36,299 nucleotides of DNA, taken from assembly GCA_021767845.1 (NCBI GenBank), contig JAASSQ010000002.1:1-36299 (forward strand). The letters are read 5' to 3'. A program made the translations under genes and the position numbers. Shown one piece after another: positions 4,642 through 34,108 of the stretch. The stretch is from Roseovarius sp. (GTDB lineage: Bacteria > Pseudomonadota > Alphaproteobacteria > Rhodobacterales > Rhodobacteraceae). Position 1 is the stretch's first letter, and every line of letters starts with the position of its first letter. The notes beneath the pieces were generated by a model that saw only the letters and a list, made by a program, of their open reading frames with translations, was not told where the DNA came from and made no database searches.

Positions 4642-4668
4642 TCTTCGGGCCAAGCGTCTGAAAACCAG

Positions 4669-9710: not shown

Positions 9711-11110
9711 TGGATCCGATCGACATCGGTCTGGCCGTCACCGGCGGTCTTCTGGTTCTCGTCGTTCTGGGCATGCGCGTGGCCTTTGCCGCCGGTCTGG
9801 CGGGCATGGTGGGCCTGATCTGGATTTTCTGGTCGAAGAAGGGCTACGCCCCCGACGATCTGGGCTGGGCGCTGACCGTGGCCGCCAAGACCGCCGGCCA
9901 GGTGCCGCATTCCAAGGTCAGCTCGCAAGCGTTGAGCCTGATCCCGACCTTCATCCTGATCGGCTATTTGGCCTATTACGCGGGGCTGACCCGTGCGCTT
10001 TTCGAGGCGGCAAAGCGCTGGATCGCCTGGGTGCCGGGCGGGTTGGCGGTTTCAACCGTCTTCGCGACCGCGGGCTTTGCCGCCGTGTCGGGCGCCAGCG
10101 TGGCCACCTCGGCCGTGTTCGCCCGCATCGCCATCCCCGAGATGCTGAAGATCGGGTATGACAAGAAATTCGCCGCCGGCGTGGTGGCCGCAGGCGGCAC
10201 GCTGGCCAGCCTCATTCCGCCCTCGGCGATTCTTGTGATCTACGCGATCATCGTGGAACAGGATGTCGGCAAGCTGCTCTTGGCGGGGTTCATTCCGGGC
10301 GCGTTCTCAGCGCTTGTCTATGGCACGCTCATCATCGGGCTGGCCCTGACGATCAAGGGATTCGGCCCGCCGGTGTCGGGCTTCACATGGCGTGAGCGGC
10401 TGGTCGCGCTGCCTCCTGCCTTGCCGATCCTGCTGGTCGTGGTGACGATCATCTTCTTCGTCTACAATCCCTTCGGCGGCGATGCCTGGGGCACGCCCAC
10501 CGAGGGCGGGGCGATCGGGGCATTCATCGTGTTCCTGATGGCGGTTTACCGCGGGATGCGGTGGACCGAGCTGAAAGATGCGCTGCTGGAAACCGCGAAA
10601 CTCAGCGTGATGATCTTCACGATCATCTGGGGCGTGCTGATCTATGTTCGCTTCTTGGGCTTTGCCGATCTGCCGGGGGCGTTTGCCGACTGGATCACAT
10701 CGCTGACCCTGTCGCCCATGCTGATCCTGATCTGCATCCTGCTGGCCTATGCCGTGCTGGGCATGTTCATGGACGCGATCGGGATGCTGCTTCTGACATT
10801 GCCGGTGGTCTACCCGGCGGTCATGGCGCTGAACGGAGGCGAATTCGTGTCGGCGGCCGACAGTGCCTTTGGAATGTCGGGGCCGATGTGCGCGATCTGG
10901 TTCGGTATCCTGGTGGTCAAGATGGCCGAGTTCTGCCTGATCACGCCGCCCATCGGCCTGAACTGCTTTGTCGTGGCCGGTGTGCGCCCGGATCTCAGCG
11001 TTCAGGACGTGTTCAAGGGCGTGATGCCGTTTTTCATCGCGGATGCGATCACCATTGGTCTTCTTGTGGCCTTCCCGATGATCGTCCTGTGGCTGCCGGG
11101 GCTCGTGTAA
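9710..11110 (+). CDS. TRAP transporter large permease (DctM family)
   Basis: Polytopic membrane protein with DctM-like motifs (FATAGFAAVSGASVATSAVFARIAIPEM, GGTLASLIPPSAILVIYAIIVEQDVGKLLLAGFIPG); overlaps the dctQ stop. Confidence 0.92.
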   Translation: MDPIDIGLAVTGGLLVLVVLGMRVAFAAGLAGMVGLIWIFWSKKGYAPDDLGWALTVAAKTAGQVPHSKVSSQALSLIPTFILIGYLAYYAGLTRALFEAAKRWIAWVPGGLAVSTVFATAGFAAVSGASVATSAVFARIAIPEMLKIGYDKKFAAGVVAAGGTLASLIPPSAILVIYAIIVEQDVGKLLLAGFIPGAFSALVYGTLIIGLALTIKGFGPPVSGFTWRERLVALPPALPILLVVVTIIFFVYNPFGGDAWGTPTEGGAIGAFIVFLMAVYRGMRWTELKDALLETAKLSVMIFTIIWGVLIYVRFLGFADLPGAFADWITSLTLSPMLILICILLAYAVLGMFMDAIGMLLLTLPVVYPAVMALNGGEFVSAADSAFGMSGPMCAIWFGILVVKMAEFCLITPPIGLNCFVVAGVRPDLSVQDVFKGVMPFFIADAITIGLLVAFPMIVLWLPGLV

Positions 11111-11126
11111 CGCGTGGGAAGGGGCC

Positions 11127-11140
11127 GGGCCCGCGGGCCC
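11127..11140. terminator. GC-rich palindrome between convergent genes, possible bidirectional terminator
   Basis: Perfect palindrome GGGCCCGCGGGCCC between dctM (+) and the NUDIX gene (-); no U tract. Confidence 0.35.
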
Positions 11141-11145
11141 CGGTC

Positions 11146-11592
11146 TCACGGCAGGGCGCGGATGTAGCGGGCCACGAAGGCTCCATCGCCCTCGCTGGCG
11201 AGCAGGCCGGCGGCTTGCCGGGCAGGGGCCCAGATAACGCTGTGGCCCGGTTCCGTTGGGGCCGACAGACATCGAACGGGCCGCGCCGCGAAGATCGTGC
11301 AGATCTTTTCCGCCCACAGGTCGTAATCCGGCATGTAAGTGAAGCGGCGATAGACGCCCAAGCGCCGCGCGCCCGCGATCTTCCAGCCGGTCTCCTCGTG
11401 CACCTCGCGGTGAAGCGCCTGCAACGGAGATTCGCCGGGATCGATTCCGCCACCCGGCAATTGTATCTCCGGCTGCGGCTCTTGCTGGAAGGTCAGAAGC
11501 AAGCCATCCGGCCCCGGCAATATCGCATAGACACCCGGTCGCGGGCGGTAGGCGATGTCGCGGCGCGGCGTGTCTCCGAATCTCGGCGTCAT
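11146..11592 (-). CDS. NUDIX hydrolase
   Basis: NUDIX box GGGIDPGESPLQALHREVHEETGWKI. Confidence 0.92.
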   Translation of the reverse strand: MTPRFGDTPRRDIAYRPRPGVYAILPGPDGLLLTFQQEPQPEIQLPGGGIDPGESPLQALHREVHEETGWKIAGARRLGVYRRFTYMPDYDLWAEKICTIFAARPVRCLSAPTEPGHSVIWAPARQAAGLLASEGDGAFVARYIRALP

Positions 11593-11613
11593 CCTTGCAT
11601 CATCCCTTGCCGC

Positions 11614-11859
11614 TCACCCGCCCTTGAGGCGCGCCAGAAGCACGACTTCGCTGTCCTCATGGATCGGGGTGAACCAGCTGTCATTGTAGACCTTGCCGTC
11701 AATCGCCACCGATATGCCGCGTTCAAGCTGCGGTTTGATGGCCGGATACTGCTCCGCCAACCCGTCCAGCAATTCCCGCAAAGTCGAGGCGTCGATGTTC
11801 ACCTCGGACCGACCGTCCGTCGCTGACGTCAGAGAGCCGAAGACCTTGACCTGCACCAT
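11614..11859 (-). CDS. MoaD/ThiS-family ubiquitin-like small protein
   Basis: 81 aa, beta-grasp-like pattern and C-terminal ...LLARLKGG (diglycine), directly downstream of molybdo-hydroxylase genes. Confidence 0.75.
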   Translation of the reverse strand: MVQVKVFGSLTSATDGRSEVNIDASTLRELLDGLAEQYPAIKPQLERGISVAIDGKVYNDSWFTPIHEDSEVVLLARLKGG

Positions 11860-11865
11860 GCCGGA

Positions 11866-14124
11866 TCAGCCGTTCTCCGACTGGATTGCGGCCAGCACGC
11901 GGGGTGGCGACATGGGCAATGCGGTCATCCGCACGCCGGCGGCCTCGGACACGGCGTTGGCGACAGCCGCCAGCGGCGGCACGATCGAGGTCTCGCCGAC
12001 GCCGCGCACGCCGTAGGGGTGGCCGGGGTTCGGGATTTCAAGGATCACCGTGTCGATCATCGGCAGGTCCGATGCGACCGGGATTCGGTAATCGAGGAAA
12101 CCGGGGTTCTGCAGGATGCCATCCTCGCCATAGATGTATTCCTCGTTCAGTGCCCAGCCGATGCCCTGCACCGCGCCGCCCTGGAACTGACCCTCGACAT
12201 AAGACGGGTGCACCGCCTTACCGGCGTCCTGGAACACCGTGTAGCGCAGGATCTTGACGGCGCCCGTATCGGGATCGACCTCGGTATCGACCATGTGGGT
12301 GGCAAAGCTGACACCGGCGCCTTCGGCATTGACCTCGAAATGGCCCGCAATCGGACCGCCGGTGTTCGAGGCGATGGCGGCGATCTCGGCCAGCGACATC
12401 GGCTCGTGGTCGCCGGCATTGGGGCCGGCCGGTTTGGCGGCGCCGTCTTCCCAGACCACGGCCTCTTCGTCGATGCCCCAGACCATCGCGGCGCGTTTGC
12501 ACATCTCACGCTTCGCGGCACGGGCCGCTTCAATGGTGGCAAGGCCCACGGCAAAGGTTACGCGGCTGCCATCCGTCACCTCGTTCTGGCCGAGCGATCC
12601 GGTATCGGCGATCACGGTGCGCACCTTGTCATAGGGGATGCCCAGTTCCTCGGCCGCCATCATCGACATCGAGGCGCGCGAGCCGCCGATGTCGGGGTTG
12701 CCCTCGGACAGCGTAACGGTACCGTCCGGCGTGATGTTGAGTGACACGCAGGTATCCCCGCCGAAGTTGAACCAGAACCCGCAAGCCACGCCCCGGCCCT
12801 GGTTCGGGCCAAGCGGCGCGGACCAATGCGGATGGTCCTTGGCCTTGCGCAGCGTGGCCTCCAGCCCGATGGCAGGATAGGTCGGGCCATAGGATGCACG
12901 CGTGCCTTCGCGCGCGGCGTTCTTCAACCGAACCTCCAGCGGGTCCAGGCCGAATCCCTTGGCCAATTCGTCGATCGCGCTTTCCACGGCAAAGGCAGCC
13001 ATCGGCGCGCCGGGTGCACGATACGCGGCCTGCTTGGGGCGGTTGGTGACAACGTCCCATCCCACCGTCTTCACGTTTTCCAGATCATAAGGCGCGAAGG
13101 CCGACATCGACCCCATGTCCACGGGCGAGCCGGGATAGGCCCCGCCCTGATAGCGCAGCTCGGCGAAACCGGCGGTGATGCGGCCATCTTTCGTCATGCC
13201 GATGCGCACGTCGATGGAGCTCGAGGCGGTGGGGCCGGTGGCGCGCAGCACCTCGGCGCGCGACATCACCATCTTGACCGGCCGCCCGGATTTTTGCGCC
13301 AGTTTCAGCGCGACGGGTTCAAGGAACACGGTGGTCTTGCCCCCGAACCCGCCACCGATTTCCGACGCCGTGACGCGCAACTGCCCCTGCTCGATGCCCA
13401 GGATCTCGGCGCATGTGTTGCGCACCATGTAATGACCTTGCGTGCAGCACCACAGATCGGCCTGACCATCCGGCCCCATCGAGGCCAGGCAGGCATGAGG
13501 TTCGATGTAGCCCTGATGCGTGGCCTCTGTGCGGTAGGTGCGTTCCAGCACCCGGTCGGCCTGTGCCAGCCCGGCCTCGATATCCCCGTGCCCGAATTCG
13601 TGGCGCGCCATGACATTGGGCGACATGCCCTCCGGCACGGTTTCGTTCGCGCGGCCATCGTGCAGGCTTGGCGCATCGGGTTGCATCGCCGCGTCCACGT
13701 CCGTGACATGCGGCAAAGGCTCGTAGTCGATTTCGATCAGCTTCAGCGCCTGCTTGGCAATCTTGCCCGATGTCGCGGCCACGGCGGCCACGGCGTGTCC
13801 GTCGTAAAGCGCCTTGTCGCCCGCCATGCAGTTATCCAGAACATCCGCCGTCGCCTCGTTCTCGACCGCGCCGAAATCGGCGCGCGTCACCACGGCATGC
13901 ACACCTGTCAGGGCCTCGGCGGCGGAGGTGTCGATCGACTTGATCCGCGCATGGGCGTGCGGGCTGCGCAGGACAAGCCCCACCAACATGCCGGGCGCCG
14001 ACATGTCGGCGCCGAACCGCGCCCTGCCCGTGACCTTGTCGATCCCGTCGGGCCGCAGCGGGCGGGTGCCGATCACCTTGAAATTCAGCTTTTCGCCGTC
14101 GCTCTTGCTGTCGAGTGCCATCAC
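11866..14124 (-). CDS. Xanthine dehydrogenase family, molybdopterin-binding (large) subunit
   Basis: IGTRPLRPDGIDKVTGRARFGADM, GGGFGGKT, AYRAPGAPMAAFAVESAIDELA, GVRGVGETSIVPPLAAVANAV. Confidence 0.92.
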   Translation of the reverse strand: MMALDSKSDGEKLNFKVIGTRPLRPDGIDKVTGRARFGADMSAPGMLVGLVLRSPHAHARIKSIDTSAAEALTGVHAVVTRADFGAVENEATADVLDNCMAGDKALYDGHAVAAVAATSGKIAKQALKLIEIDYEPLPHVTDVDAAMQPDAPSLHDGRANETVPEGMSPNVMARHEFGHGDIEAGLAQADRVLERTYRTEATHQGYIEPHACLASMGPDGQADLWCCTQGHYMVRNTCAEILGIEQGQLRVTASEIGGGFGGKTTVFLEPVALKLAQKSGRPVKMVMSRAEVLRATGPTASSSIDVRIGMTKDGRITAGFAELRYQGGAYPGSPVDMGSMSAFAPYDLENVKTVGWDVVTNRPKQAAYRAPGAPMAAFAVESAIDELAKGFGLDPLEVRLKNAAREGTRASYGPTYPAIGLEATLRKAKDHPHWSAPLGPNQGRGVACGFWFNFGGDTCVSLNITPDGTVTLSEGNPDIGGSRASMSMMAAEELGIPYDKVRTVIADTGSLGQNEVTDGSRVTFAVGLATIEAARAAKREMCKRAAMVWGIDEEAVVWEDGAAKPAGPNAGDHEPMSLAEIAAIASNTGGPIAGHFEVNAEGAGVSFATHMVDTEVDPDTGAVKILRYTVFQDAGKAVHPSYVEGQFQGGAVQGIGWALNEEYIYGEDGILQNPGFLDYRIPVASDLPMIDTVILEIPNPGHPYGVRGVGETSIVPPLAAVANAVSEAAGVRMTALPMSPPRVLAAIQSENG

Positions 14125-14600
14125 GATGCCTCCCGCATGTCCTGGGCCGCATCCAGAACGGCCCGGATAATCTTGTCATATCCGGTGCAGCGGCACAGGT
14201 TGCCCGCCAGCCAGTAGCGCGCCTCTTCCTCGGTCGGGTCGGGGTTGCGTTCCAGCAGCGACTTGGCCGCCACGAGGATGCCCGGCGTGCAGATCCCGCA
14301 TTGCAGCGCCGCGTGCTCGATGAACTTCTGTTGCAGCGGGTGCAGCGTATCGCCTTTGGCCATGCCCTCGATCGTGCCGATCTCGCGGCCCTCGGCCTCG
14401 GCGCCCAGCATCAGGCAGGCGCAGACCAGACGGCCATCGACCGTGATCGAACAGGCCCCGCAATCGCCGGTGCCACAGCCCTCTTTCGATCCGGTCATGC
14501 CCAGCCTGTCACGCAGCACGTCCAGCAGCGTGTCCTCGGCCTCGCACAGGTATTCCGTGGGGTCGCCATTGATCGTCGTGGTGACGTGAATCTTGCTCAT
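14121..14600 (-). CDS. (2Fe-2S)-binding small subunit of molybdo-hydroxylase
   Basis: Two 2Fe-2S motifs: GCGTGDCGACSITVDG...C and QCGICTPG...NLCRCTGYDKI; start set at MSKIHVTTTING (14600). Confidence 0.93.
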   Translation of the reverse strand: MSKIHVTTTINGDPTEYLCEAEDTLLDVLRDRLGMTGSKEGCGTGDCGACSITVDGRLVCACLMLGAEAEGREIGTIEGMAKGDTLHPLQQKFIEHAALQCGICTPGILVAAKSLLERNPDPTEEEARYWLAGNLCRCTGYDKIIRAVLDAAQDMREAS

Positions 14601-15460
14601 GCCGCACCTCCTGCGCGGGTCTTTGCGATGGCCGTGGCGCGCCGCGCCAGCACACCGGCCACGTGTTTGCGGTAATCCGCGGTGCCGCGCTTGTCGTCGA
14701 TCGGGTTGGCCGCGGCCGAGCAGGCCTGCGCCACGCGATCCAGCGTGGCCGCGTCGATGATTGACCCGGTCAGGATGTCGGCTGCCTCCTTGACCGCGAT
14801 CACCTTGGGCCCCACCGCGCCAAGCGCCACCCGCGCCGCGGTGCAGGTGCCTGCGGCGTCCAGTGTCAACGAGACTGCGCAACCCACCACCGCGATGTCC
14901 ATTTCGGTGCGCGGAATGAAACGCAGGTAGGCATCGCCCGACCGCGCCGGCCGCGCGGGCAGGAAGATCGAGGTGATGAACTCGTCCCGCCCAAGGCTGG
15001 TTTTTCCCGGCCCGTCCGGCACATCGAACACCGCCACATCCCGAACACCGTCGGGTCCGGCCACCCGCGCCACCGCGTCGGCGGCAACCAGTGCCGGAAC
15101 GCTGTCGGCGGCGGGCGAGGCGTTGCACAGGTTGCCCGCCATCGTGGCGCGGCCCTGGATCTGGGTCGATCCGATCAGGCCCACGGCCTCGACCACGCCC
15201 GGCCAGTCGCTGACCAGATCGGCGTTTTCGCTCATTTCCGCGCCCGGGACCGCCGCCCCGATCCGCCAGCCGCCGTCTTCGCGGGTGATCCGGCGCAGTT
15301 CGTCTATGCGCTTGATGTCAAGCACGCTGTCGGGTTCGGTCATGCCCGAGCGCAGACGCACCAGAAGATCGGTGCCGCCTGCCAAAACGCGGCATTCGCC
15401 GGTTCGAGACGCCAGAAGCTGCACGGCATCTTCAACGGTGTTGGGGGACAAATATTGCAT
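14597..15460 (-). CDS. FAD-binding subunit of molybdo-hydroxylase (CoxM/CutM-like)
   Basis: MQYLSPNTVEDAVQLLA...VLAGGTDLLVRLRSG, TMAGNLCNASPAADSVPAL. Confidence 0.92.
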   Translation of the reverse strand: MQYLSPNTVEDAVQLLASRTGECRVLAGGTDLLVRLRSGMTEPDSVLDIKRIDELRRITREDGGWRIGAAVPGAEMSENADLVSDWPGVVEAVGLIGSTQIQGRATMAGNLCNASPAADSVPALVAADAVARVAGPDGVRDVAVFDVPDGPGKTSLGRDEFITSIFLPARPARSGDAYLRFIPRTEMDIAVVGCAVSLTLDAAGTCTAARVALGAVGPKVIAVKEAADILTGSIIDAATLDRVAQACSAAANPIDDKRGTADYRKHVAGVLARRATAIAKTRAGGAA

Positions 15461-15647
15461 TGGCGCTTCCAGATTGCAGGTGGCTGGCCGCGGTCCCGCG
15501 ACCGGATCGTGTTGTCGCCCAAAGCGTAACCACTGCCGGGAGCGGACTCAATGACCGTTCCGACACGTTCTGTTGCCTCCGGCGACATCGCGCTGGCGCA
15601 TTTTTTGACCACATCCCGAATGCTGTCACAGTCATGTGGCGCAGTAG

Positions 15648-17504
15648 ATGGACCGGGCAGCCCGGTTGTTCTACCACTTGAAAGGAGATCGTCCGGCGCT
15701 TCGATACGTTTCGGTCGGTCCCGGCAAGACGGAACCAGGAGCCGCCCCAAAGGTGACGCAACAATCGAAACCCGGACTGTTCCAGGCCCGCCTGCATGAA
15801 TTGGTCGCGACGATCTATCCGCAGGAAGACTGCGAGGCGCTGTCGGCCAGGATCGTATCCGCCTTCTGGCCCGAAGGCACGCATCGGCGCAAACGCGCCC
15901 GAGCGCCCAGCAACGGGCTTTGGTCGGAAAGGGACGCGGTTCTGATCACCTACGGGGACACCATCCGCGACGGCAAACACAAGCCTCTGGACCTGTTGCA
16001 GGATTTCCTGGTCAACCATCTGCAAGGCGTGGTGAACGGCGTGCATATCCTGCCGTTCTTCCCGTTCAGCTCGGATGACGGGTTCGCCGTCACCGATTAC
16101 CGTGCCGTGAACTCCCAGCTTGGGGAGTGGGCCGATATCGAACGGATCGCAAGGCGCTTCCATCTGATGTCGGACCTTGTGCTGAACCATGTCTCGTCAC
16201 AGGGCGCGTGGTTCAATGCCTACCGGCAGGGACAATCCCCGTATGATCGCTTCTTTTACGAGGCCGATCCGAATGATGACCTGTCCAAGGTGGTGCGCCC
16301 CCGGACAACGCCGCTGCTGCAAAGGATCGAGACCCGGCAGGGTGTGCGCCATGTCTGGTGTACCTTCAGTCACGACCAGATCGACCTGAATTTCGCCAAT
16401 CCCGAGGTTCTGCTGGAAATGCTTCGCATCATCCGGCTGCATATCAAAAAGGGCGTGCGCATCCTGAGGCTGGATGCCGTGGCGTTCATCTGGAAAGAGG
16501 TCGGGACCAATTGCATCCACCTGCCGCAAACGCATGCCATCGTGCAGCTTTTGCGCCTGCTGTGTGATTATGCCACCGAAACCGTCGTTCTACTGACCGA
16601 AACCAACGTGCCGCGCAGCGAGAACCTGAGCTATTTCGGCAACCGAAACGAGGCACACGCGGTCTACAACTTCCCCCTGCCGCCGCTGATTTTGCATGCG
16701 ATGCAATCGGGAACCGCGCGATACCTGCATCGCTGGCAGGCCGCGATGCCCCCCGCGCAGCTTGGATGTGCCTATCTGAATTTCACGGCCAGCCATGATG
16801 GCATCGGGATGCGCCCGGCCGAGGGCGTCCTGCCGCCCGAGGAAAAGGCGCGCATGATCGAAACGGTTCAGGCGGCGGGCGGTCTGGTCTCGATGCGGGC
16901 GCTGCCCGATGGCAGGGAAGAACCCTACGAACTCAATTCATCGCTGTTCGATGCTCTGCGCCGCACCTTCAAGGGTGAAGACGCCCATCACATCGAACGG
17001 TTCTTTTGTTCGCAGACCATCGTGATGTCGCTCGAGGGAATACCGGCCTTCTACATCCATTCCCTGCTGGCCACCCGCAACGATCACGACGCCGTCACGC
17101 GGCGCGGCATGAAGCGGGCGATCAACCGTCACCGCTGGCACTATCCCGATCTGATGGAGCTTCTGCGCGACCCCGCCTCCGAGCAGTCGCAGGTGATGCG
17201 CGGCATGTCCGAACGCCTGCGGATCCGGTCACGCCAGCCTGCCTTTCATCCCAATGCCACCCAGTTCACGCTGACGCTGGATGACCGGTTGTTCGGCATC
17301 TGGCGGCAAAGCCTTGACCGCAACCAGTCGATCTTCGCCATCCACAATGTCAGCGATGAACCGGTGTCGGTCAGCCGCTCGGCGATCAACCTGATCGAGG
17401 ATGACCGCTGGTTCGATCTGCTGAGCGGGGAGGAAATCGTGCTTGGCGGTCCCGAAATCGTCTTCGGGCCCTATCAATGCCGCTGGATCTCCAACCGGGC
17501 CTGA
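15648..17504 (+). CDS. GH13_18-type sugar phosphorylase (sucrose phosphorylase-like; probable glucosylglycerate phosphorylase)
   Basis: GH13 elements: GVHILPFFPFSSDDGFAVTDY, RLDAVAFIWKE, LLTETNVPRSENLSYFGN, NFTASHDGIGMRPAEG. Glucosylglycerate assignment is from the adjacent GpgS/GpgP-like genes. Exact start uncertain. Confidence 0.8.
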   Translation: MDRAARLFYHLKGDRPALRYVSVGPGKTEPGAAPKVTQQSKPGLFQARLHELVATIYPQEDCEALSARIVSAFWPEGTHRRKRARAPSNGLWSERDAVLITYGDTIRDGKHKPLDLLQDFLVNHLQGVVNGVHILPFFPFSSDDGFAVTDYRAVNSQLGEWADIERIARRFHLMSDLVLNHVSSQGAWFNAYRQGQSPYDRFFYEADPNDDLSKVVRPRTTPLLQRIETRQGVRHVWCTFSHDQIDLNFANPEVLLEMLRIIRLHIKKGVRILRLDAVAFIWKEVGTNCIHLPQTHAIVQLLRLLCDYATETVVLLTETNVPRSENLSYFGNRNEAHAVYNFPLPPLILHAMQSGTARYLHRWQAAMPPAQLGCAYLNFTASHDGIGMRPAEGVLPPEEKARMIETVQAAGGLVSMRALPDGREEPYELNSSLFDALRRTFKGEDAHHIERFFCSQTIVMSLEGIPAFYIHSLLATRNDHDAVTRRGMKRAINRHRWHYPDLMELLRDPASEQSQVMRGMSERLRIRSRQPAFHPNATQFTLTLDDRLFGIWRQSLDRNQSIFAIHNVSDEPVSVSRSAINLIEDDRWFDLLSGEEIVLGGPEIVFGPYQCRWISNRA

Positions 17505-17510
17505 CCGCGG

Positions 17511-18731
17511 TCAGCGGAACCGGGCCTCGTCCTCGGATGCGGCCCGCCGGAGATCGGCCAGGAAATCCGGGTCGGCAGCATGCACGCGGTTCCACGTCGG
17601 GATGAAGGGGCTTTCGTTGGGATTTTCCAGGAAGACCTGGCCCGCGCGAATGATGTTCTCGGCGAAAAGCTCGACGGATTTTTCTTCCTTGTGACGGTCC
17701 ACGGCAAGGCCGTTCATCTTGGCGTCGTTGTAATAGCTTTCCAGCAGGTCCAGCGCCTGCCTGTAATAGGTGGCTTTCAGCGTGCGAAAAAGGTTCGGGG
17801 TAAACACCGTCCCGTCCGAGGCCAGCTTGCGGAACACCGCCTTGCAGATGTCGGTGGACATGCGGCTCAGTCCGCGGCTGGCATCCTCTGGCGACAGGTC
17901 TTGGTGCTTGTGGTCATAGGCGTCCGAGATATCCACCTGGCAGACCGCATGCGGCGCCAGGTTGCGCCACGCTTCGGACAGGACGCCGATCTCCAGCCCC
18001 CAGTCCGACGGGATGCGCAAATCCGGCAGGGTGGCCGTGCGCAGCGCGAATTCACCGGACAGCGGATAGCGGAAGCTGCGCAGGTAATCCAGGTAATCGC
18101 GGTCGCCCACCACCTTTTTCAGAGCGATCAGGAGCGGGCTGACCAGCAGGCGCGTCACCCGCCCGTTCAGCCGCTGGCCGTCGATGCGCGGATAGAACCC
18201 CTTGGCCATCTGGTAGGGAAAGGCCGGATGCGCCACCGGGTAGACAAGCCGGGCCAGCATCCCGCGGTCATAGGTCAGGATGTCACAATCATGAATCGCC
18301 ATGATCGCGCTGTCCGCGCAGGCGATCAAATAGCCCATGCAGCCCCAGACATTCTTGCCCTTGCCGGCCTCTTGCGGGGCCAGGCCAAGATGGTCCAGCC
18401 TAGAGCCCAGTTCCGTCATGCGCGGGCTGTCGTTCCAAAGCACGATGTGCTTCTGCGGCAGCCGCGCAAAAAACTCTCGTGCGTGGCGAAACTGCGCCTC
18501 GTTCGCCTGATCCAGGCCGATGATGATGCGGTGCAGATAGGGAACACTGGAAAGCTCGTCGAGGATATGCGGCAGGGCGGGCCCTTCGAGTTCGGAGTAG
18601 AGACACGGCAGGATCAACGAGATCTTGCGGCTCTCGGCAAAGGCGCTCAACTCGTAGGTCAGGTCGTCGAGGCTGCGGGTTCTGAGGTTGTGCAGCGTGG
18701 TGATGCTGCCGTTCTGATGAAAATCAGCCAT
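17511..18731 (-). CDS. Glucosyl-3-phosphoglycerate synthase-like glycosyltransferase (GT81)
   Basis: ISLILPCLYSELEGPALPHILDEL, IMAIHDCDILTYDRGMLARLVYPV, IPSDWGLEIGVLSEAWRNL resemble the GpgS/MpgS-type GT-A fold; neighbours fit. Confidence 0.8.
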   Translation of the reverse strand: MADFHQNGSITTLHNLRTRSLDDLTYELSAFAESRKISLILPCLYSELEGPALPHILDELSSVPYLHRIIIGLDQANEAQFRHAREFFARLPQKHIVLWNDSPRMTELGSRLDHLGLAPQEAGKGKNVWGCMGYLIACADSAIMAIHDCDILTYDRGMLARLVYPVAHPAFPYQMAKGFYPRIDGQRLNGRVTRLLVSPLLIALKKVVGDRDYLDYLRSFRYPLSGEFALRTATLPDLRIPSDWGLEIGVLSEAWRNLAPHAVCQVDISDAYDHKHQDLSPEDASRGLSRMSTDICKAVFRKLASDGTVFTPNLFRTLKATYYRQALDLLESYYNDAKMNGLAVDRHKEEKSVELFAENIIRAGQVFLENPNESPFIPTWNRVHAADPDFLADLRRAASEDEARFR

Positions 18732-24754: not shown

Positions 24755-24829
24755 GCCCGGGTAGCTCAGGGGTAGAGCAGTGGATTGAAAATCCTCGTGT
24801 CGGTGGTTCGATTCCGCCCCCGGGCACCA
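24755..24829 (+). tRNA. tRNA-Phe(GAA), island integration site
   Basis: Acceptor GCCCGGG/CCCGGGC, anticodon loop TTGAAAA, T arm GGTGG-TTCGATT-CCGCC, encoded CCA. Confidence 0.93.
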
Positions 24830-24830
24830 C
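24814..24830 (+). repeat. att direct repeat, tRNA-proximal copy
   Basis: CCGCCCCCGGGCACCAC, identical to 34092-34108. Confidence 0.92.
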
Positions 24831-24964: not shown

Positions 24965-25693
24965 ATGCTACCAAATAGCATGCCCTTGACCGATATCGCC
25001 TTGAAAAAATTGAAGCCTTTGGAGCGCGCTTATAAGAAAGCCGACTCGAACGGCTTGTTCATTTGGGTAAAACCAAACGGATCGAAACACTGGCATTTCA
25101 AGTACCGTTTTTTGGGAAAAGAAAAACTGATGTCCTACGGGCCTTATCCGCTAATCTCTTTGAAGGAAGCCCGAGACAAGCGCGACCGAGACAAGAAGCT
25201 GCTGCTTGAGGGCATCGATCCCGCATCTGTGAAGAAAGAACGCAAGCTGGCCGCCGAGATTGCTCAGCGCGGCCAGTTCGAAGTACTGGCCGAAGAACTG
25301 CTGGACAAAAACCGGCGCGAAGGGAAGGCCGAGCAGACCATCAAGAAGAAGTCCTGGCTGCTCGACATGGCAAACGCAAAGCTGGGCAAGCGGCCCATCA
25401 TGGAGATCACGCCCAGCGAGGTTTTGGCTGTGCTCAAAAAGCAGGAACAGGCCGGAAATCTGGAAACGGCCAGCCGCCTGCGTTCGACCATCGGCGAGGT
25501 GTTCCGCTATGCCATTGCAACGGGTTTCACCGTGAATGATCCGACGGTGGCCTTGAAAGGTGCGCTGGTTCGCAAGCGTGTGAAATCTCGTTCCGCCATC
25601 ACAGACAAGAAACAGCTTGGTAAGCTGCTGGTCGCCATATCCAACGCCTCGAAGACAATACCAAGCTGGACGCTACCAAGCGACGGGATCTGA
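24965..25693 (+). pseudogene. P4-type tyrosine integrase, C-terminally truncated (arm-binding and core-binding domains only)
   Basis: Typical N-terminal part (LTDIALKKLKPLERAYKKADSNGLFIWVKPNGSKHWHFKYRFLGKEKLMSYGPYPLISLKEARDKRD). Family-like sequence stops near ITDKKQLGKLLVAI (~25642); no catalytic R/HxxR/GH/Y segment. Confidence 0.85.
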
Positions 25694-25755
25694 TTTCCGC
25701 AGTCTGTTGCGCAGCTAACCTGATCGACCGTCAGCCCTTCGAACTCGAAGCTGAC

Positions 25756-27267
25756 GTGCCCAGACTGCGGGATGCCCTCTTGAAGGTTCACCCGAAGCAA
25801 GCCGGGATTACGGCTAAGCGGCTGTCGAACATCAAATCCGATCTCGGACTTGCTTTGCGCATTACCCGCACCGCGCCCCGGCAACGGAGCAGTGCAGACC
25901 GTACCGATGCCTGGTTGAGTTTTCTGAACAGCGCGAGCGTCAAGCATCAGAAACACCAGTTGTCCCGGTTTGTGGATTTCTGCTGCAGTCATGGGCTTGA
26001 GCCGGATCAGGTCAACGACAACGTTATGAGTGCGTTCGAAGCTCATCTTGACGCCCGCATTCTGACGAAAAACCCCAAAGAAATCCGCAAGGATGCCAGC
26101 TACGCTTGGAATGCGATCATCAAACAGAACAATCTGTCGTTTACCCCTTTGGTGGTGCCTAAAGCTGACCGTTACATTGCGGCGCCTCTGAACCAGTACC
26201 CCGTTTCGCTTCAGGCCGATCTCGCAAAGTATCTCGAACGGCTTCGCCACGCAGACATCATGGATGAGGAAGGCCCGGACAGGGCATTGAGTGAAACCTC
26301 CCTCCGCAACGTTGAAGCGCATGTTCGCCAGTTCTTGGACGCCGCCTGTTCGAACGGTTTCGACCGGACCGACTTCGAAAATCTGTCGGACGCTTTGCGG
26401 CCTGACGTTATGAAGGCAGCCGTCACCAAAATCCAGGAGCGCCAAGGCGGCCAGCTTACCGCAACGACGCGCAACATTCTCGCGACCCTTCAGGCCATCG
26501 CCAAGTACCACGTGAAGGCACCGAATGAGACCGTCAACTTGATCCGCAAAGCCAAGTCCAAGATTGGAGATGTCCAGATCGGGATGACCGATAAGAATAT
26601 GGAGCGGCTTGCGCAGTTTGATGACCCGCGGAACATCGCCCGGCTTGTCACGCTTCCCAACGATTTGATGCAATGGGCGCAGGAAAACTCGACCCAAAAG
26701 CACGCACCGCTTCGTGCAATGCATGCCGTGGCGATCAGTATCCTCTTGGTATGCCCTTTGCGCATCAAAAACATCTCGATGCTGGACATTGAGAGGCACC
26801 TTAGGGCGCAACGCGGCGGGAAGCACAAGATTTACGCGTTGCATATTCCGGCCAGCGAGATGAAGAACCGCAACCCGATGGATTTTGCCTTGGGAGAGCA
26901 GCCCTCTCGCCATCTGGAAACGTATCTGTCCAATTTCAGGCAGCATGTATCCAATGACCCGGGGACCGCTCTGTTTCCCAAAAAGTCAGGAGGGGGGCCT
27001 CGGACTCCGGACAACCTCGGTCATGAAATCTCGCGGCTGATCCGCCGCGAAACCGGTTTAGTGATGAACGCGCACCTCTTCCGCCATTTTAATGGCATGA
27101 TGTACCTGAACTACTATCCGGGTGAGTTTGAAACGGTGCGTCAATTTCTGGGGCACAAGAAACTCGATACAACGATGACATTTTATGCCCGCTTCAGCAG
27201 CAAGGCTGCCATCGCGCGGTACGACCAGGCTGTTCTGTCCAAATGGCAGGGAGGCCAAGATGACTGA
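25756..27267 (+). CDS. Tyrosine-type recombinase (long form), probably 5'-truncated
   Basis: Catalytic signatures: R in CPLRIKNISML, HLFRHF (HxxR), LGHKKLDTTMTFYARF (GH...Y). Protein-like sequence continues upstream in frame to ~25650 without ATG/GTG/TTG. Confidence 0.85.
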   Translation: MPRLRDALLKVHPKQAGITAKRLSNIKSDLGLALRITRTAPRQRSSADRTDAWLSFLNSASVKHQKHQLSRFVDFCCSHGLEPDQVNDNVMSAFEAHLDARILTKNPKEIRKDASYAWNAIIKQNNLSFTPLVVPKADRYIAAPLNQYPVSLQADLAKYLERLRHADIMDEEGPDRALSETSLRNVEAHVRQFLDAACSNGFDRTDFENLSDALRPDVMKAAVTKIQERQGGQLTATTRNILATLQAIAKYHVKAPNETVNLIRKAKSKIGDVQIGMTDKNMERLAQFDDPRNIARLVTLPNDLMQWAQENSTQKHAPLRAMHAVAISILLVCPLRIKNISMLDIERHLRAQRGGKHKIYALHIPASEMKNRNPMDFALGEQPSRHLETYLSNFRQHVSNDPGTALFPKKSGGGPRTPDNLGHEISRLIRRETGLVMNAHLFRHFNGMMYLNYYPGEFETVRQFLGHKKLDTTMTFYARFSSKAAIARYDQAVLSKWQGGQDD

Positions 27268-28297
27268 TATTCCGCTGGTTCTGAAAATTGACGATTGGCC
27301 GTCGCCTGACAAGGCCCTTTGGTATTCGCTGTTCGAGAAAGCGGACCTTTTCGACGACACGGGTCAACTGGCACATTGGCGTTCGGGTTCCCAGCAAATG
27401 TTGCGTCAAGCCTACGGCCAGTGGCTCTCCTTTTTGGCACGTAATCACGATCAAGCTTTGCTCGAAGCGCCGCTCACGCGGGTTCGGCCCGATTTGGTCG
27501 GCCAATACATCAAAGAGTGCCAACTGCGTCTTGCGCCGCAAACGGTCTACAACCTCGTAACGGATATCTGCATTTTGGCGCGAGCCGCTGCTCCCGAGCT
27601 CGATTGGGCTTGGTTGCACCGCGTTGCAAAACGTCTGGCTCATAAGGCGGATAGCGACAGCTTGAAGGCGCGTATCCCGTTGACGGCAGGACAGATATTC
27701 GACTGGAGCCTTCGTCGAATGGCGGCTATCCAATCCGATCAGACCCGGTCCGAGAAGAAGCGTGCCATCCATTTTCGTGACGCTCTGATCATTGGTTTTC
27801 TCATCGCGCGTCCCGTCCGCAAGCGCGCTCTTCTTGCAATGAATGTGGATCAGCACCTAAATAAGCGAGGGCAGGGCTTCTCGCTGTACTTCCCGAAAGA
27901 AGACATGAAGGACGGTCGTTCTCGGGAATATCCGTTCCCAGAGAAACTGGCTGCATCAATGTTCGAATATCTGGACGTTCATCGGCCGGTTTTGCTGGGC
28001 GGAAACGACGAGGCAGGGCTTTGGGTTAACTATTATGGGAAGCGCTTCGCTTATGACGGCTTCACGCGGATGTTTGGAAAACTGACGGAGGCGCATTTTG
28101 GTTTCCATCTTCGCCCCCATTCATTTCGTCATATCGTTGCGACATCCATCGCTGAATTCGATCCAGCGCATGTCGGGATAATTCGGGATATCCTGGGTCA
28201 TGCCACATTGGATATGGCTGAGAGACATTACAACTGCGCAACTCAGATTTCGAGCTGCAACGCGTTGCAGTTGCTCTACGCTGCTTATTTGAGATAG
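27260..28297 (+). CDS. Tyrosine-type recombinase (second, shorter)
   Basis: RPVRKRALLAM, HSFRHIVATS, LGHATLDMAERHYN; start MTDIPLVLKIDDW overlaps the preceding stop by 8 bp. The ORF track's 27185 start is less likely. Confidence 0.85.
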   Translation: MTDIPLVLKIDDWPSPDKALWYSLFEKADLFDDTGQLAHWRSGSQQMLRQAYGQWLSFLARNHDQALLEAPLTRVRPDLVGQYIKECQLRLAPQTVYNLVTDICILARAAAPELDWAWLHRVAKRLAHKADSDSLKARIPLTAGQIFDWSLRRMAAIQSDQTRSEKKRAIHFRDALIIGFLIARPVRKRALLAMNVDQHLNKRGQGFSLYFPKEDMKDGRSREYPFPEKLAASMFEYLDVHRPVLLGGNDEAGLWVNYYGKRFAYDGFTRMFGKLTEAHFGFHLRPHSFRHIVATSIAEFDPAHVGIIRDILGHATLDMAERHYNCATQISSCNALQLLYAAYLR

Positions 28298-28959: not shown

Positions 28960-29012
28960 TAGACTCACGGAAGGTCGCGCCTATAGTGTCGGCGGGAAAA
29001 TCAGGCACTATA
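28960..29012 (+). promoter_or_regulatory. Candidate promoter plus operator dyad for the methyltransferase operon
   Basis: TAGACT (28960-28965) - 16 bp - TATAGT (28982-28987), and dyad TATAGTG (28982-28988)/CACTATA (29006-29012) whose left arm overlaps the -10. Confidence 0.45.
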
Positions 29013-29095: not shown

Positions 29096-30031
29096 ATGGA
29101 CGCATATTACAGCACTCAGTTGGGTTCAGCGTATAACGTCGCCGCAGAAGAATTCCTGGAAAGCCAGCATGCCGCGCAGATAAAAGGCAAGCTTGATCTG
29201 ATCTTCACATCCCCGCCATTTCCCCTCATCGCCAAGAAGAAATACGGCAACCAGATCGGTGAAGAGTACCTCGCCTGGATCGTCGAGACTATTAAAGGTC
29301 TTGCCGAATTGCTCGCCGAGGACGGCTCGCTTGTGATTGAGATCGGCAATGCCTGGATCAAGGGCTCGCCGGTCATGTCAACACTCCCGCTTGAAACGCT
29401 TCTCGAAATCCAGAAGAAAACGGACCTTCACCTCTGCCAACAATTCATCTGCCATAACCCCGCGCGCCTTCCCGGTCCCGCGCAATGGGTCACCATTGAG
29501 CGCATCCGCGTGAAAGACAGCTTTACGCATGTCTGGTGGTTTTCCCCGAGCGAACGGCCAAAGGCTTCAAACCGCAAGGTGCTCCAACCCTATAAACCCG
29601 CCATGCGCAAGCTCATGGCGCGCAAAAGCTACAATGCTGGACCGCGCCCGTCCGGCCACAGTATCAGTGAAGACTCATTTTTTACGGATAACGGCGGAGC
29701 CATTCCGCCGAACGTATTGGAGTTCTCCAATACGGCGTGGAAAGCAGCATACAAGAAGTGGTGCAAACGCCATAATGTGCCGCCTCATCCGGCGCGTATG
29801 CCCCAGGGGCTAGTGGAATTCTTCATCAAGTTTCTCACCGAGGAAGGCGATCTTGTGCTCGACCCGTTCGCCGGGAGCAACACAACGGGCGCAACCGCCG
29901 AGAAGCTGAACCGCCGATGGATCGGCATCGAGAAGATCGAGCCTTACCTTCTGGGGTCGATGGGCCAGTTCGATGATCCAGATCGCCTGCTTTCCAACCC
30001 GCCGGGCGCCAGCAACGATGCCGCTGAATGA
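29096..30031 (+). CDS. Beta-class site-specific DNA methyltransferase (N4-cytosine or N6-adenine)
   Basis: Motif IV DLIFTSPPF upstream of C-terminal motif I LVLDPFAGSNTTGATAEKLNRRWIGIE; HNPARLPGPAQWVTIERIRVKDSFTHVWWFSPS typical of the PF01555 type. Start ATG 29096 after a GAGGGG RBS. Confidence 0.9.
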   Translation: MDAYYSTQLGSAYNVAAEEFLESQHAAQIKGKLDLIFTSPPFPLIAKKKYGNQIGEEYLAWIVETIKGLAELLAEDGSLVIEIGNAWIKGSPVMSTLPLETLLEIQKKTDLHLCQQFICHNPARLPGPAQWVTIERIRVKDSFTHVWWFSPSERPKASNRKVLQPYKPAMRKLMARKSYNAGPRPSGHSISEDSFFTDNGGAIPPNVLEFSNTAWKAAYKKWCKRHNVPPHPARMPQGLVEFFIKFLTEEGDLVLDPFAGSNTTGATAEKLNRRWIGIEKIEPYLLGSMGQFDDPDRLLSNPPGASNDAAE

Positions 30032-31233
30032 GCACGCCAGCCTTAAAATTTGAGCCGCGCGACTGGCAAAAGAACGCCCTCGCCGCGTGGGAGCAGGCCG
30101 GTCGCCGCGGCATTGCCAAGGTGGTCACGGGCGGCGGCAAAACCATATTCGCAGAGCTTTGCATGAGCTTGGTGCTGAAAAGCGAAGAGGCGCCGCATTT
30201 CGTCATTCTGGTTCCCACCATCTCGTTGCTCGACCAGTGGACGCTCAGTCTTGAAGACGAGTTTGGCGTCTCGCCGGCTGACATCGCCCTTTGGTCCGGC
30301 AGGAAAAAGCCGAAGGAGCCTGCTACATTCAATATCGCTGTCATCAATTCCGCACGGAACCTGATTGGCAAGATCACCGGCGGCGATCACCCGACTATGC
30401 TCATCGTCGATGAAGTCCATCGTGCGGCCAGCGCGCAGAACGCCAAGGCCCTTGAAGGCGACTTCGTCGCACGGCTCGGGCTATCGGCCACACCGGAACG
30501 CCAGTTCGACGACCTCTTCGAAGAGGTGCTCAAACCGCGGATCGGTCCTATCATCTTCGACTATGACATCATCGCCGCGGCGAAGGACGGTATCCTCTCT
30601 CGCTTCGAAGCCGTGAATGTCGAGTTTGAGCTTCTGGCCGATGAGGCGGCGGCCTACAACGACCTGACCGCCCGTATTGCTCGGCGCAGAGCCATGGTCT
30701 CCGGTGATGATGACGAGGTGCTAGAAGCGCTCTTGCGCAAACGGGCGCGCGTCTCTGCGATGGCGACGTTTCGCGTGCCGCTTTCCGTTCGGCTTTGCGA
30801 ACAGCACAAAGGCGCACGCACCTTGATTTTTCACGAAGACATCGGCGCGGCACAGAACATCTTTCAGACACTAATCTCCCGTAACCACGCCGCAACCATG
30901 TACCACTCCAAGATTGCCGGACCGCGGCGACGGGAGAATCTACGCATGTTTAAGAAAGGGATATTCGATGTACTTGTTTGCTGCCGCGCTCTTGATGAAG
31001 GCCTGAACATCCCGGAAGTCGAAGTGGCGATCATCGCCAGCTCCACCTCCAGCATGCGCCAGCGCATCCAGCGCCTTGGTCGGGTTCTGCGCCCGCATGC
31101 GAGCAAAAACAAGGCGACGATCTACACGCTCTTTGCCACGGGAGCCGAGAAGGACCGGCTCGCAGCAGAGGCTATTGCACTGCAGGAAATCGCCGATATT
31201 CGCTGGGCTAAGGTTAGTCGCGCCGATGGCTAG
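30028..31233 (+). CDS. Superfamily II DEAD/DEAH-type helicase (XPB/type III Res subunit-like)
   Basis: RDWQKNALAAWEQ (Q motif), VVTGGGKT (Walker A), LIVDEVHRA (DEVH), GLSATPER (motif III), QRIQRLGRVLRPH (motif VI). Starts at ATGA overlap with MTase. Confidence 0.93.
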   Translation: MSTPALKFEPRDWQKNALAAWEQAGRRGIAKVVTGGGKTIFAELCMSLVLKSEEAPHFVILVPTISLLDQWTLSLEDEFGVSPADIALWSGRKKPKEPATFNIAVINSARNLIGKITGGDHPTMLIVDEVHRAASAQNAKALEGDFVARLGLSATPERQFDDLFEEVLKPRIGPIIFDYDIIAAAKDGILSRFEAVNVEFELLADEAAAYNDLTARIARRRAMVSGDDDEVLEALLRKRARVSAMATFRVPLSVRLCEQHKGARTLIFHEDIGAAQNIFQTLISRNHAATMYHSKIAGPRRRENLRMFKKGIFDVLVCCRALDEGLNIPEVEVAIIASSTSSMRQRIQRLGRVLRPHASKNKATIYTLFATGAEKDRLAAEAIALQEIADIRWAKVSRADG

Positions 31234-32017
31234 GCTCCTTGTCAACGGGCAATGGTACGATCCGGTGCAAGCCGACTCCATCTACGAGTCCGATCTTGAA
31301 GACCTGATCATCGCGCAAGCGCCAGTGCTTTATCCTAATTATTGGGTGATCAAGTACAAGCGCGTGATCACCTCAGAATATGGAACGGCGACGCCGGACC
31401 TGGCCTTCATCGAAAAAAACTACCGGACCTGGTATCTCTGCGAAGTGGAGCTTGGCTCGCACGATCTTTTCTCACACGTGCTCCCTCAGATCATGGTGTT
31501 CTCGAATGCGCGTGTCGGAGCATCGGAAGCGGCCTATATCGCCGCGAAAGAACCAGCGCTCGACGAGGATCAGCTTGCCGCCATGATGAAAGGCGTACCA
31601 CCCGGCGTCGTCGTGCTAGTCAACACTTTTGATCAGGATTGGCGGCGCGCCTTGAGTAAATGGGGTGCGCTTGTTGGGTTCATCGAACTCTACCGTGATC
31701 AGGGCCAGCGGCTCATCATGCGGATCAATGGCGATGATCTCAGTATACCAGCACAGCTCGTCACAGAATGCATCCGCGACGAGCTTCTGCCGAACGCGCT
31801 GCGTGTGAACGCTCCGGCGCCGATAGAGGCGCTTGCCAATCCCGATCTGGAGCTGTGGTATGAGGGCGGCCGCACGACATGGAAGGTCCTGCGTTCCGGC
31901 GGCTCATGCTGGCTGCTTCCCAAGGAGCGCTGCCCCCTGGGGGCCAAAGATCAGCGCTTTGTTATTACCCGCAACGCCAATGCACGGATCATGTTGGAAA
32001 GGGCAGGAAAGAAATGA
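31226..32017 (+). CDS. Putative PD-(D/E)XK-superfamily nuclease-like protein with D...ExE signature
   Basis: ESDLEDLIIAQAP...TATPDLAFIEKNYRTWYLCEVELGSHD: E, then PD, then E-V-E in strand spacing typical of the fold; K of ExK replaced by E. Start inside the helicase 3' end. Confidence 0.6.
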   Translation: MARLLVNGQWYDPVQADSIYESDLEDLIIAQAPVLYPNYWVIKYKRVITSEYGTATPDLAFIEKNYRTWYLCEVELGSHDLFSHVLPQIMVFSNARVGASEAAYIAAKEPALDEDQLAAMMKGVPPGVVVLVNTFDQDWRRALSKWGALVGFIELYRDQGQRLIMRINGDDLSIPAQLVTECIRDELLPNALRVNAPAPIEALANPDLELWYEGGRTTWKVLRSGGSCWLLPKERCPLGAKDQRFVITRNANARIMLERAGKK

Positions 32018-33546
32018 GCCTGAATTTTGTAATCGAGAATGACGTTGTTCTATCCTACCGTCGCCTTTCTTATACTCACTGGCACGCCCTCGCCGAGTTC
32101 GTCGACAACTCCACGCAGGCCTATTTCAACAGCCGCGACGAGCTTGATCCGCTTCTCCAGGAAGAAAATGAAATCCTCGAAGTCCGGATCACCTATGATC
32201 GCAACACCGATGAGCTTCGGATCACTGACAACTCCATCGGCATGTCCTACGGAGACCTAGAACGCGCTTTGAAAATCGGCAAGCCGCCGCCCAACACGTC
32301 CGGGCGCTCGCAATATGGTATGGGCATGAAGACGGCAGCATGCTGGTTGGGTGAGGCCTGGGAGATCGTGACCAAGCGCCTCGGCGAAGACGTCGAGCAC
32401 CGGGTGCATATTGATGTCTCCAAGATTGCTGGCGGGGACAACGCACTCGAATACAGCACCATCCCGAAGCCGCAGACCCAGCACTACACCTACATCACAG
32501 TCAAGAAGCTGCACTCCAAGATTGCCGGCCGGACCATCGGCAAGATCAAGGCGTTTCTTCGCTCGATGTATCGCGTCGATCTTCGCGAGGGCAATCTGCG
32601 CCTATGGTTTCAGGATGAGGAGCTTCTCTGGGAAGACGAGAGCATCTTTCTGCAAAAACCCGACGGTTCTCTCTACAAGCGCGATTTCGAATTCGAGGTT
32701 TACGGCAAGAAAGCCTATGGCTGGTTCGGCATTCTTGGCAAAGGCCGGACAGGGCGTGCCAATGCCGGTTTTTCCATCATGCGGCGCGGACGGATGGTGC
32801 GCGGTCATCCCGCGGCCTGGCGTCCGGAGGATATCTTCGGACCCGGCGGTAGCAACGATTTGATCAACCAAAGGCTCGTCGGCGAGATTCACCTCGATGA
32901 TTTTTCTGTTTCCCACACCAAGGATGACATCCAGTGGGAGAACGATGAGGAAGAGAAAGTCGAAGCGGCGCTTGCCGAAGAGTGCGCTGACTTCACCGCC
33001 TTCATCAAAGCATCCGGGAAGCGCCAAGGCGGGGACACGCGTGGACCGACAGCCGTCGAAGTACAAACCGCCACGGACGAATTGCGTCACGAGATGGAAA
33101 CCAAGGAATTCGTAGACTCGATCACTATCGATGATGCACCCCCGCCGGAAGTCGTCGCTGCCGCCAACGCTCAGCTTGTCGCGCAAGCATCGGAACATGA
33201 ACCCAACCTCATGCTGAGGATCGGAGACCATGTGTGCAAGATCTTCATCTCGGACGATTATTCGATCAACGACCCGTACTATGTTCATGAAATTACCAAT
33301 GAAAGCATGGTGGTCGTGGTTAACCAGAACCACCCACACTGGATCGAGCTTCAAGGTTCGGAAGGCGTGCTGAACTATTTGCGTCATTGCGTCTATGACG
33401 CGATTGCCGAGTGGCAAGCATCAATGCGGACGGCTGCTATCCTTCCAGAGACGGTCAGAATATATAAAGACAAGCTCTTGCGCCTTCCGGCGCAAATCGA
33501 GGATGGCTCCCACTATGAAGAAAACGGGCAAGGCCAGTTGCTCTGA
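32014..33546 (+). CDS. MORC/MutL-like GHKL (HSP90-type) ATPase
   Basis: GHKL N-box ALAEFVDNSTQAY, DNSIGMS (DxGxG-like), GRSQYGMGMKTAACWLG (lid GxxGxG/GxK). Start ATGA overlaps preceding stop. Confidence 0.88.
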   Translation: MSLNFVIENDVVLSYRRLSYTHWHALAEFVDNSTQAYFNSRDELDPLLQEENEILEVRITYDRNTDELRITDNSIGMSYGDLERALKIGKPPPNTSGRSQYGMGMKTAACWLGEAWEIVTKRLGEDVEHRVHIDVSKIAGGDNALEYSTIPKPQTQHYTYITVKKLHSKIAGRTIGKIKAFLRSMYRVDLREGNLRLWFQDEELLWEDESIFLQKPDGSLYKRDFEFEVYGKKAYGWFGILGKGRTGRANAGFSIMRRGRMVRGHPAAWRPEDIFGPGGSNDLINQRLVGEIHLDDFSVSHTKDDIQWENDEEEKVEAALAEECADFTAFIKASGKRQGGDTRGPTAVEVQTATDELRHEMETKEFVDSITIDDAPPPEVVAAANAQLVAQASEHEPNLMLRIGDHVCKIFISDDYSINDPYYVHEITNESMVVVVNQNHPHWIELQGSEGVLNYLRHCVYDAIAEWQASMRTAAILPETVRIYKDKLLRLPAQIEDGSHYEENGQGQLL

Positions 33547-34091: not shown

Positions 34092-34108
34092 CCGCCCCCG
34101 GGCACCAC
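34092..34108 (+). repeat. att direct repeat, distal copy
   Basis: CCGCCCCCGGGCACCAC, identical to the tRNA-Phe 3' end. Confidence 0.92.

What the first reader, a model, noticed from the sequence alone, without database searches (positions are those of the whole stretch)
29096..33546. Four-gene, translationally coupled methyltransferase - SF2 helicase - ExE nuclease-like - MORC-type GHKL ATPase operon
Seen directly: each junction overlaps (30028/30031, 31226/31233, 32014/32017), so the genes are probably co-expressed in fixed order. Motifs support a beta-class DNA MTase, a DEVH helicase, a PD-(D/E)XK-like protein and a GHKL ATPase with intact N, G1 and G2 boxes. Established knowledge: Iyer, Abhiman and Aravind (2008) described prokaryotic MORC/paraMORC GHKL proteins in predicted restriction-modification neighbourhoods with SF2 helicases and endonucleases. 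Inference: a modification-dependent anti-phage system in which the ATPase acts as a DNA clamp or gate coupling helicase to nuclease. It has no recognisable specificity subunit and does not look like canonical type I, type III, DISARM or BREX.
Basis: partly seen in the sequence, partly recalled or inferred. Interest (0 to 1): 0.88.

Follow-up and report, generated by a model that had tools for sequence, protein, structure and literature searches.

The report
MORC restriction operon with PvuII-like methylase
A bacterial chromosome carries, on a small mobile island, a conserved set of four overlapping genes that looks like a DNA-marking and foreign-DNA-attack system built around a MORC ATPase, a protein family best known from gene silencing in plants and animals; no experimental study of a bacterial MORC turned up in the papers searched.

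Summary
In detail: four genes at 29096-33546, overlapping by 4, 8 and 4 nt. The reading is mostly right and can be sharpened. (1) The methylase is M.PvuII-like (N4-cytosine) and should carry its own target recognition, so no specificity subunit is missing. (2) The helicase is a bare XPB/Rad25 core, apart from PbeA. (3) The 263-aa protein matches no known family; it keeps a PD...ExE motif and a weakly supported restriction-endonuclease fold. (4) The GHKL protein carries the motif that defines prokaryotic MORCs. All four genes recur in a Rhodospirillales MAG (same order) and in genome G041 (order permuted, near SIR2-HerA defence genes). Eleven other MORC relatives sit in Dcm-MORC-Z1 operons instead. 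The operon lies on a 9.3-kb island bounded by a 17-bp tRNA-Phe repeat; the same tRNA site holds Dcm-type MORC islands in two relatives. The same methylase clade also serves a PbeA/PbeC module. Best reading: an uncharacterised, methylation-guarded, ATP-dependent restriction system, a new variant of the MORC systems predicted by Iyer et al. 2008. Not shown: DNA modification, cleavage, phage resistance, the MORC's role.

The parts
29096..30031 (+). M.PvuII-like N4-cytosine DNA methylase (P0001, 311 aa)
   Evidence: 1boo M.PvuII E 3.3e-68 over residues 5-294; Pfam N6_N4_Mtase; 43% identity to M.PvuII of pPvu1
30028..31233 (+). XPB/Rad25-like SF2 helicase core without fused nuclease (P0002, 401 aa)
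   Evidence: ResIII and Helicase_C; archaeal XPB 5.7e-28; own clade apart from PbeA
31226..32017 (+). PD-(D/E)xE protein, predicted nuclease (P0003, 263 aa)
   Evidence: invariant E21, E25, PD57-58, EVEL73-76 in four homologues; model pLDDT 65; Foldseek neighbours mostly RE-fold nucleases, best E 3e-3
32014..33546 (+). MORC-family GHKL ATPase (P0004, 510 aa)
   Evidence: HATPase_c_3; MORC motif GFSIMRRGRMV and SHTKD lysine; clade distinct from Dcm-linked MORCs
24755..24829 (+). tRNA-Phe gene, attachment site of the island
   Evidence: ARAGORN
24814..24830 (+). left end repeat of the island, CCGCCCCCGGGCACCAC
   Evidence: exact 17-bp direct repeat
34092..34108 (+). right end repeat of the island, same 17 bp
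   Evidence: about 2e-6 expected by base composition in the 2.75 kb searched
24965..25693 (+). truncated tyrosine integrase (no catalytic domain)
   Evidence: Arm-DNA-bind_3 and Phage_int_M only; the same-genus G885 copy is 95% identical and 501 aa
25756..27267 (+). tyrosine recombinase of the island
   Evidence: Phage_integrase 2.9e-9
27260..28297 (+). second tyrosine recombinase of the island (exact start unsure)
   Evidence: Phage_integrase 1.7e-11

Best explanation
A horizontally acquired, methylation-guarded, ATP-dependent restriction system. Step 1 (strong homology): the M.PvuII-like enzyme puts N4-methylcytosine on a short, probably palindromic site in host DNA. Step 2 (inferred): the XPB-like helicase and the PD-(D/E)xE protein form a helicase-nuclease pair that engages DNA with unmethylated sites, the helicase opening or translocating and the partner cutting. 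Step 3 (inferred): the MORC dimerises on ATP, encloses or loops DNA, and couples recognition of unmarked sites to activation of the pair, so that host DNA is spared and unmarked phage or plasmid DNA is attacked.
For: Four coupled genes kept together in two other lineages, once in a permuted order. Full-length M.PvuII relative. Helicase of the restriction/repair XPB group. P0003 with conserved PD...ExE and RE-fold neighbours that include Bax1 alone and in complex with XPB. MORC with intact motifs. Parallel design: the same methylase clade precedes a PbeA/PbeC module on a plasmid, and PbeABCD defends against a virus in a modification-dependent way (PMC6459918). tRNA-Phe island; SIR2-HerA defence genes beside the G041 copy. 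Iyer et al. found MORCs linked to SF2 helicases, nucleases and methylases.
Against: No functional data of any kind. P0003 has E in place of the usual lysine and only weak fold support, none of the Foldseek hits below E 1e-3. The set is rare, so conservation rests on three loci. The Rhodospirillales copy has an in-frame stop in the helicase. CAGCTG is no more avoided than in the genus.
Confidence: 0.58

Rival explanations
1. Pbe-like replication block: the methylase marks self, while helicase, MORC and P0003 bind unmarked DNA and stall its replication without degrading it; P0003 is a binding or catalytically weak protein.
For: PbeABCD with a related helicase inhibits viral DNA replication with no visible cleavage (PMC6459918); P0002 matches PbeA models; P0003 lacks the catalytic lysine.
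Against: PbeA's HKD domain, PbeC and the DndE partner are absent; the helicase lies in another clade; Aravind's group argue that Pbe does cleave (PMC10853773); the acidic residues of P0003 are invariant.
Confidence: 0.2
2. MORC-gated suicide system: the pair is held off by methylated host DNA and, once infection or loss of methylation is sensed, attacks the cell's own genome as abortive infection or as an addiction module.
For: Some R-M systems kill cells that lose them (own knowledge); the operon is tightly coupled and mobile.
Against: No direct sign in the sequence; cells tolerate loss of modification in the Pbe case (PMC6459918).
Confidence: 0.08
3. Repair or decayed module: the XPB-like helicase and nuclease serve DNA repair as XPB-Bax1 does, or the operon is a relic without function.
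For: In a small tree the helicase groups with XPB-Bax1 helicases; the island's integrase is broken; one relative has a stop in its helicase.
Against: A site-specific methylase and a MORC are not part of XPB-Bax1; all four frames and motifs are intact here; the set is mobile and rare, unlike housekeeping repair.
Confidence: 0.1

Closest known systems
Prokaryotic MORC operons with Rad25-like helicase (first type of Iyer, Abhiman and Aravind 2008, PMC2292703)
   Same: MORC with the defining motif, Rad25/XPB-like SF2 helicase, RE-fold-like protein, methylase, mobile hotspot.
   Different: Their Rad25-like helicases are commonly fused to an RE or HKD nuclease; here helicase and predicted nuclease are separate genes, and the methylase is an M.PvuII-like N4mC enzyme, where they report mostly cytosine and rarely adenine methylases.
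Dcm-MORC-Z1-DUF4420 operons (third type of Iyer 2008; the helicase also matches PADLOC MzaC)
   Same: Methylase, MORC, SF2 helicase, PD-(D/E)XK-like protein; same tRNA-Phe site in two relatives.
   Different: C5 methylase, Z1 helicase and DUF4420 in place of N4 methylase, XPB and P0003; the MORCs form a separate clade, 100/100.
PbeABCD / CxC ABC ATPase-DndE systems, including those with N4 methylases (PMC6459918, PMC10853773)
   Same: XPB-type helicase; the same methylase clade in the Aurantiacibacter plasmid copy.
   Different: No HKD domain, no PbeB, PbeC or DndE partner here; MORC and P0003 instead.
PvuII restriction-modification system
   Same: Methylase family.
   Different: No PvuII endonuclease or controller gene; three other proteins take the restriction place.
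XPB-Bax1 helicase-nuclease (PMC7293015)
   Same: Nearest helicase group in a small tree; separate nuclease gene beside the helicase.
   Different: P0003 is not detectably Bax1 by profile; Bax1 is only a weak fold neighbour.

Membership tests
Prokaryotic MORC family (Iyer 2008) | GHKL N, G1 and G2 motifs | tested here: met
   E28, D31-N32, D72-N73-x-x-G76, G102-MGMK-106 invariant in 12 sequences
Prokaryotic MORC family (Iyer 2008) | GhXhhpXXRhl motif in the S5 domain | tested here: met
   GFSIMRRGRMV in P0004; relaxed (GSSLFQNERQI) in the L008 copy
Prokaryotic MORC family (Iyer 2008) | S5-fold domain with basic residue | tested here: inconclusive
   SHTKD lysine invariant, but the structure model was poor, pLDDT 46
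Rad25-type MORC operon (Iyer 2008, first type) | Rad25-like helicase beside the MORC | tested here: met
   XPB match 5.7e-28
Rad25-type MORC operon (Iyer 2008, first type) | nuclease domain fused to the helicase (common, not universal) | tested here: not met
   P0002 has only ResIII and Helicase_C over 401 aa
PbeABCD | HKD domain at the N-terminus of the helicase | tested here: not met
   P0002 aligns only to PbeA positions 250-635
PbeABCD | PbeC ATPase, PbeB small protein and DndE-like partner in the operon | tested here: not met
   P0003 and P0004 have no PADLOC match
MZA | MzaB and Z1 helicase MzaC | tested here: not met
   MzaB 21.6 bits against cut-off 850; no Z1 match
M.PvuII-like N4mC methylases | full-length homology with SPPF and FxGSNTTG motifs | tested here: met
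M.PvuII-like N4mC methylases | N4 methylation of cytosine in CAGCTG | not testable with these tools
   needs a methylome; site counts undecided
PD-(D/E)XK nuclease superfamily | E, PD and (D/E)xK residues on the core fold | tested here: inconclusive
   E, PD and ExE conserved but lysine replaced; RE-fold neighbours at E 3e-3 to 6e-2 only
XPB-Bax1 | Bax1 (DUF790) partner | tested here: not met
   profile comparison probability 0.1%
DISARM, BREX, type I and type III R-M | their signature proteins as best matches | tested here: not met
   only weak helicase- or methylase-domain cross-matches

The most novel reading that the evidence does not exclude
The bacterial MORC does here what eukaryotic MORCs are thought to do: it loads on unmethylated foreign DNA, traps and compacts it, and silences or stalls it, with the helicase-nuclease pair as a secondary step. 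That would be a methylation-read topological silencing system in bacteria.
Probability: 0.12. Interest if true: 0.85.

Novelty: new variant of a known kind. Interest (0 to 1): 0.52.

Why it matters
MORC ATPases silence transposons in animals and plants, and their proposed origin is bacterial restriction systems (PMC2292703), yet the papers searched held no assay of a bacterial MORC. This operon is small (4.45 kb, four genes), complete, and has a methylase of a structurally known family, so that origin and the MORC mechanism can be tested directly. It also shows restriction halves being exchanged: one methylase clade is joined to a PbeA/PbeC module or to a MORC module, and one tRNA-Phe site receives different MORC islands.

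Tried and rejected
Pbe membership (helicase in another clade, no HKD domain). MZA membership. P0003 as a relative of Bax1 or DUF4420 by profile (probability 0.1%). CAGCTG avoidance as a sign of specificity: no different from the genus. AlphaFold of the MORC: pLDDT 46, not used. P0003 homologues in plasmids, phages and viral contigs: none. MORC in viral contigs: only a Dcm-type one. Promoter and terminator scan no better than shuffles. The island's two recombinases are unrelated, at the cut-off used, to the pair beside the Aurantiacibacter operon.

Full report
OBSERVATION. The four genes lie where stated and overlap by 4, 8 and 4 nt. A sigma-70-like site at 28960-28987 is no better than chance, so the promoter is unknown.

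METHYLASE. P0001 is a full-length relative of M.PvuII (1boo, E 3.3e-68, residues 5-294) and is 43% identical to the M.PvuII gene of pPvu1. The SPPF motif, the DPFAGSNTTG motif and the region between them all align. It is therefore predicted to make N4-methylcytosine. M.PvuII is a lone enzyme that reads its own site (own knowledge), so the lack of a specificity subunit is expected. The target may be CAGCTG or a relative; site counts do not decide this.

HELICASE. P0002 aligns with archaeal XPB from its residue 9 on and lacks the roughly 90 residues before that point. Its best family matches are the helicase part of PbeA and the Dnd-linked restriction family TIGR04095, the latter below its cut-off. 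In a small tree (11 rows, midpoint root, some long branches) the helicases of the window, L002 and L008 form one clade (99/98), which groups with XPB-Bax1 helicases and not with PbeA (100/99).

P0003. No family match beyond chance in Pfam, PADLOC or NCBIfam. Four homologues keep E21, E25, PD57-58, EVEL73-76, SH78-79 and H84-V85-x-P87-Q88. The model has mean pLDDT 65, higher over residues 40-120. Foldseek returns mostly restriction-endonuclease-fold nucleases (AF1548, Card1, Can2, Cdn1, Bax1, the XPB-Bax1 complex, MunI, MspJI), best E 3e-3 and none below 1e-3. This is suggestive, not proof. Sequence profiles do not link it to Bax1 or DUF4420. A distant copy with a DUF5655 tail stands among housekeeping genes in G458.

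MORC. P0004 has all GHKL motifs, the SHTKD segment, and GFSIMRRGRMV, which fits letter by letter the motif with which Iyer et al. (PMC2292703) set MORCs apart.

CONSERVATION. L002, a Rhodospirillales MAG, has the four genes in the same order at 77-86% identity, with an in-frame TAG in its helicase. L008 (genome G041, same class, another order of bacteria) has all four in the order methylase-MORC-helicase-nuclease. The same contents in a changed order argue for a shared function rather than passive inheritance of one segment. The set is rare: 2 of 386 genomes of the class, the window's own included. P0003 relatives were found in 3 of 399 genomes of the phylum, two of them in this operon. Only samples of genomes were searched.

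OTHER MORCs. Eleven further relatives of P0004 (L009, L010, L011, L017, L018, L025, L026, L036, L040, L041, L042; genomes, two plasmids and one viral contig) sit with a Dcm-type C5 methylase and a Z1 helicase, in most with a DUF4420-like nuclease where the contig reaches it. A twelfth (L027) is a divergent 601-aa protein beside a Dcm gene without a recognised Z1 partner. In a tree of 12 MORCs the N4-methylase kind and the Dcm kind separate with 100/100 support.

EXCHANGE OF MODULES. On an Aurantiacibacter plasmid a methylase 53% identical to P0001 precedes an HKD-XPB helicase (PADLOC PbeA 1.6e-216), an Sp-DndD small protein and a PbeC ATPase. The four methylases (window, L002, L008, Aurantiacibacter) form a clade (96/98), and that of L008 is sister to the Pbe-linked one (100/98). 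Aravind's group had noted N4 methylases in such CxC-DndE systems (PMC10853773), and Xiong et al. suggested that Pbe may pair with methylases (PMC6459918). What is added here is that the same methylase clade also serves a MORC module.

ISLAND. A 17-bp exact repeat of the tRNA-Phe 3' end, at 24814-24830 and 34092-34108, bounds 9.3 kb (about 2e-6 expected by base composition). The integrase beside the tRNA is truncated: against the G885 island of the same genus, whose integrase is 95% identical and 501 aa and whose cargo differs, a deletion joins it to the recombinase region. The same tRNA-Phe/maf site carries Dcm-MORC-Z1-DUF4420 islands in G851 (second att-like copy with one mismatch, 13 kb away) and in G774. 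In L008 the operon is followed by an integrase and by SIR2 and HerA genes, a known defence pair in PADLOC. Iyer et al. had noted that MORC operons enter hotspots.

MECHANISM. Shown by sequence: four coupled genes, a PvuII-like methylase, an XPB-type ATPase, a protein with conserved acidic residues, a MORC. Inferred: self-marking by N4mC; helicase plus P0003 as the effector pair; the MORC as an ATP-driven clamp or loop that licenses it. Which protein reads the unmodified site is open: the methylase itself, the C-terminal half of P0003 or that of the MORC are candidates.

STATUS. A new variant of the MORC restriction systems predicted in 2008. Figure 2 of that paper could not be viewed, so this exact layout may have been drawn there. 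No experimental report on a bacterial MORC was found in the papers searched, which leave out most subscription journals.

Noticed in passing
L040 (G851) 1068-14237; L042 (G774) 5630-17541: Two other members of the window's family carry a Dcm-MORC-Z1-DUF4420 operon at the same tRNA-Phe/maf site as the window's operon: one integration site, two kinds of MORC island.
   Followed up: partly
window 25600-25760; L070 2971-11361: The window's integrase is cut short and joined to the following recombinase region by a deletion; the G885 island of the same genus keeps a longer integrase and other cargo.
   Followed up: partly
L063, L068, L074 (same genus): Further islands of 14.7, 10.6 and 1.1 kb bounded by copies of the same tRNA-Phe end: a recurrent integration site.
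   Followed up: no
own-genome sample: L089-L108 and window 1-24800: GTCGAC is strongly depleted (8 found, 101 expected in 189 kb), more than any other 6-base palindrome; possibly another restriction system.
   Followed up: no
L016 9000-10004; L118: Stand-alone distant relatives of P0003 in two genomes of another class, one with a DUF5655 tail.
   Followed up: no
L111 729-2303: A viral contig with a PvuII-like methylase directly followed by a PbeA N-terminal relative.
   Followed up: no
L002 8490-8492: In-frame TAG in the helicase of the Rhodospirillales copy: sequencing error or a broken gene.
   Followed up: no
L008 15377-19724: SIR2 and HerA genes and an unknown 345-aa protein next to the G041 copy of the operon.
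   Followed up: partly
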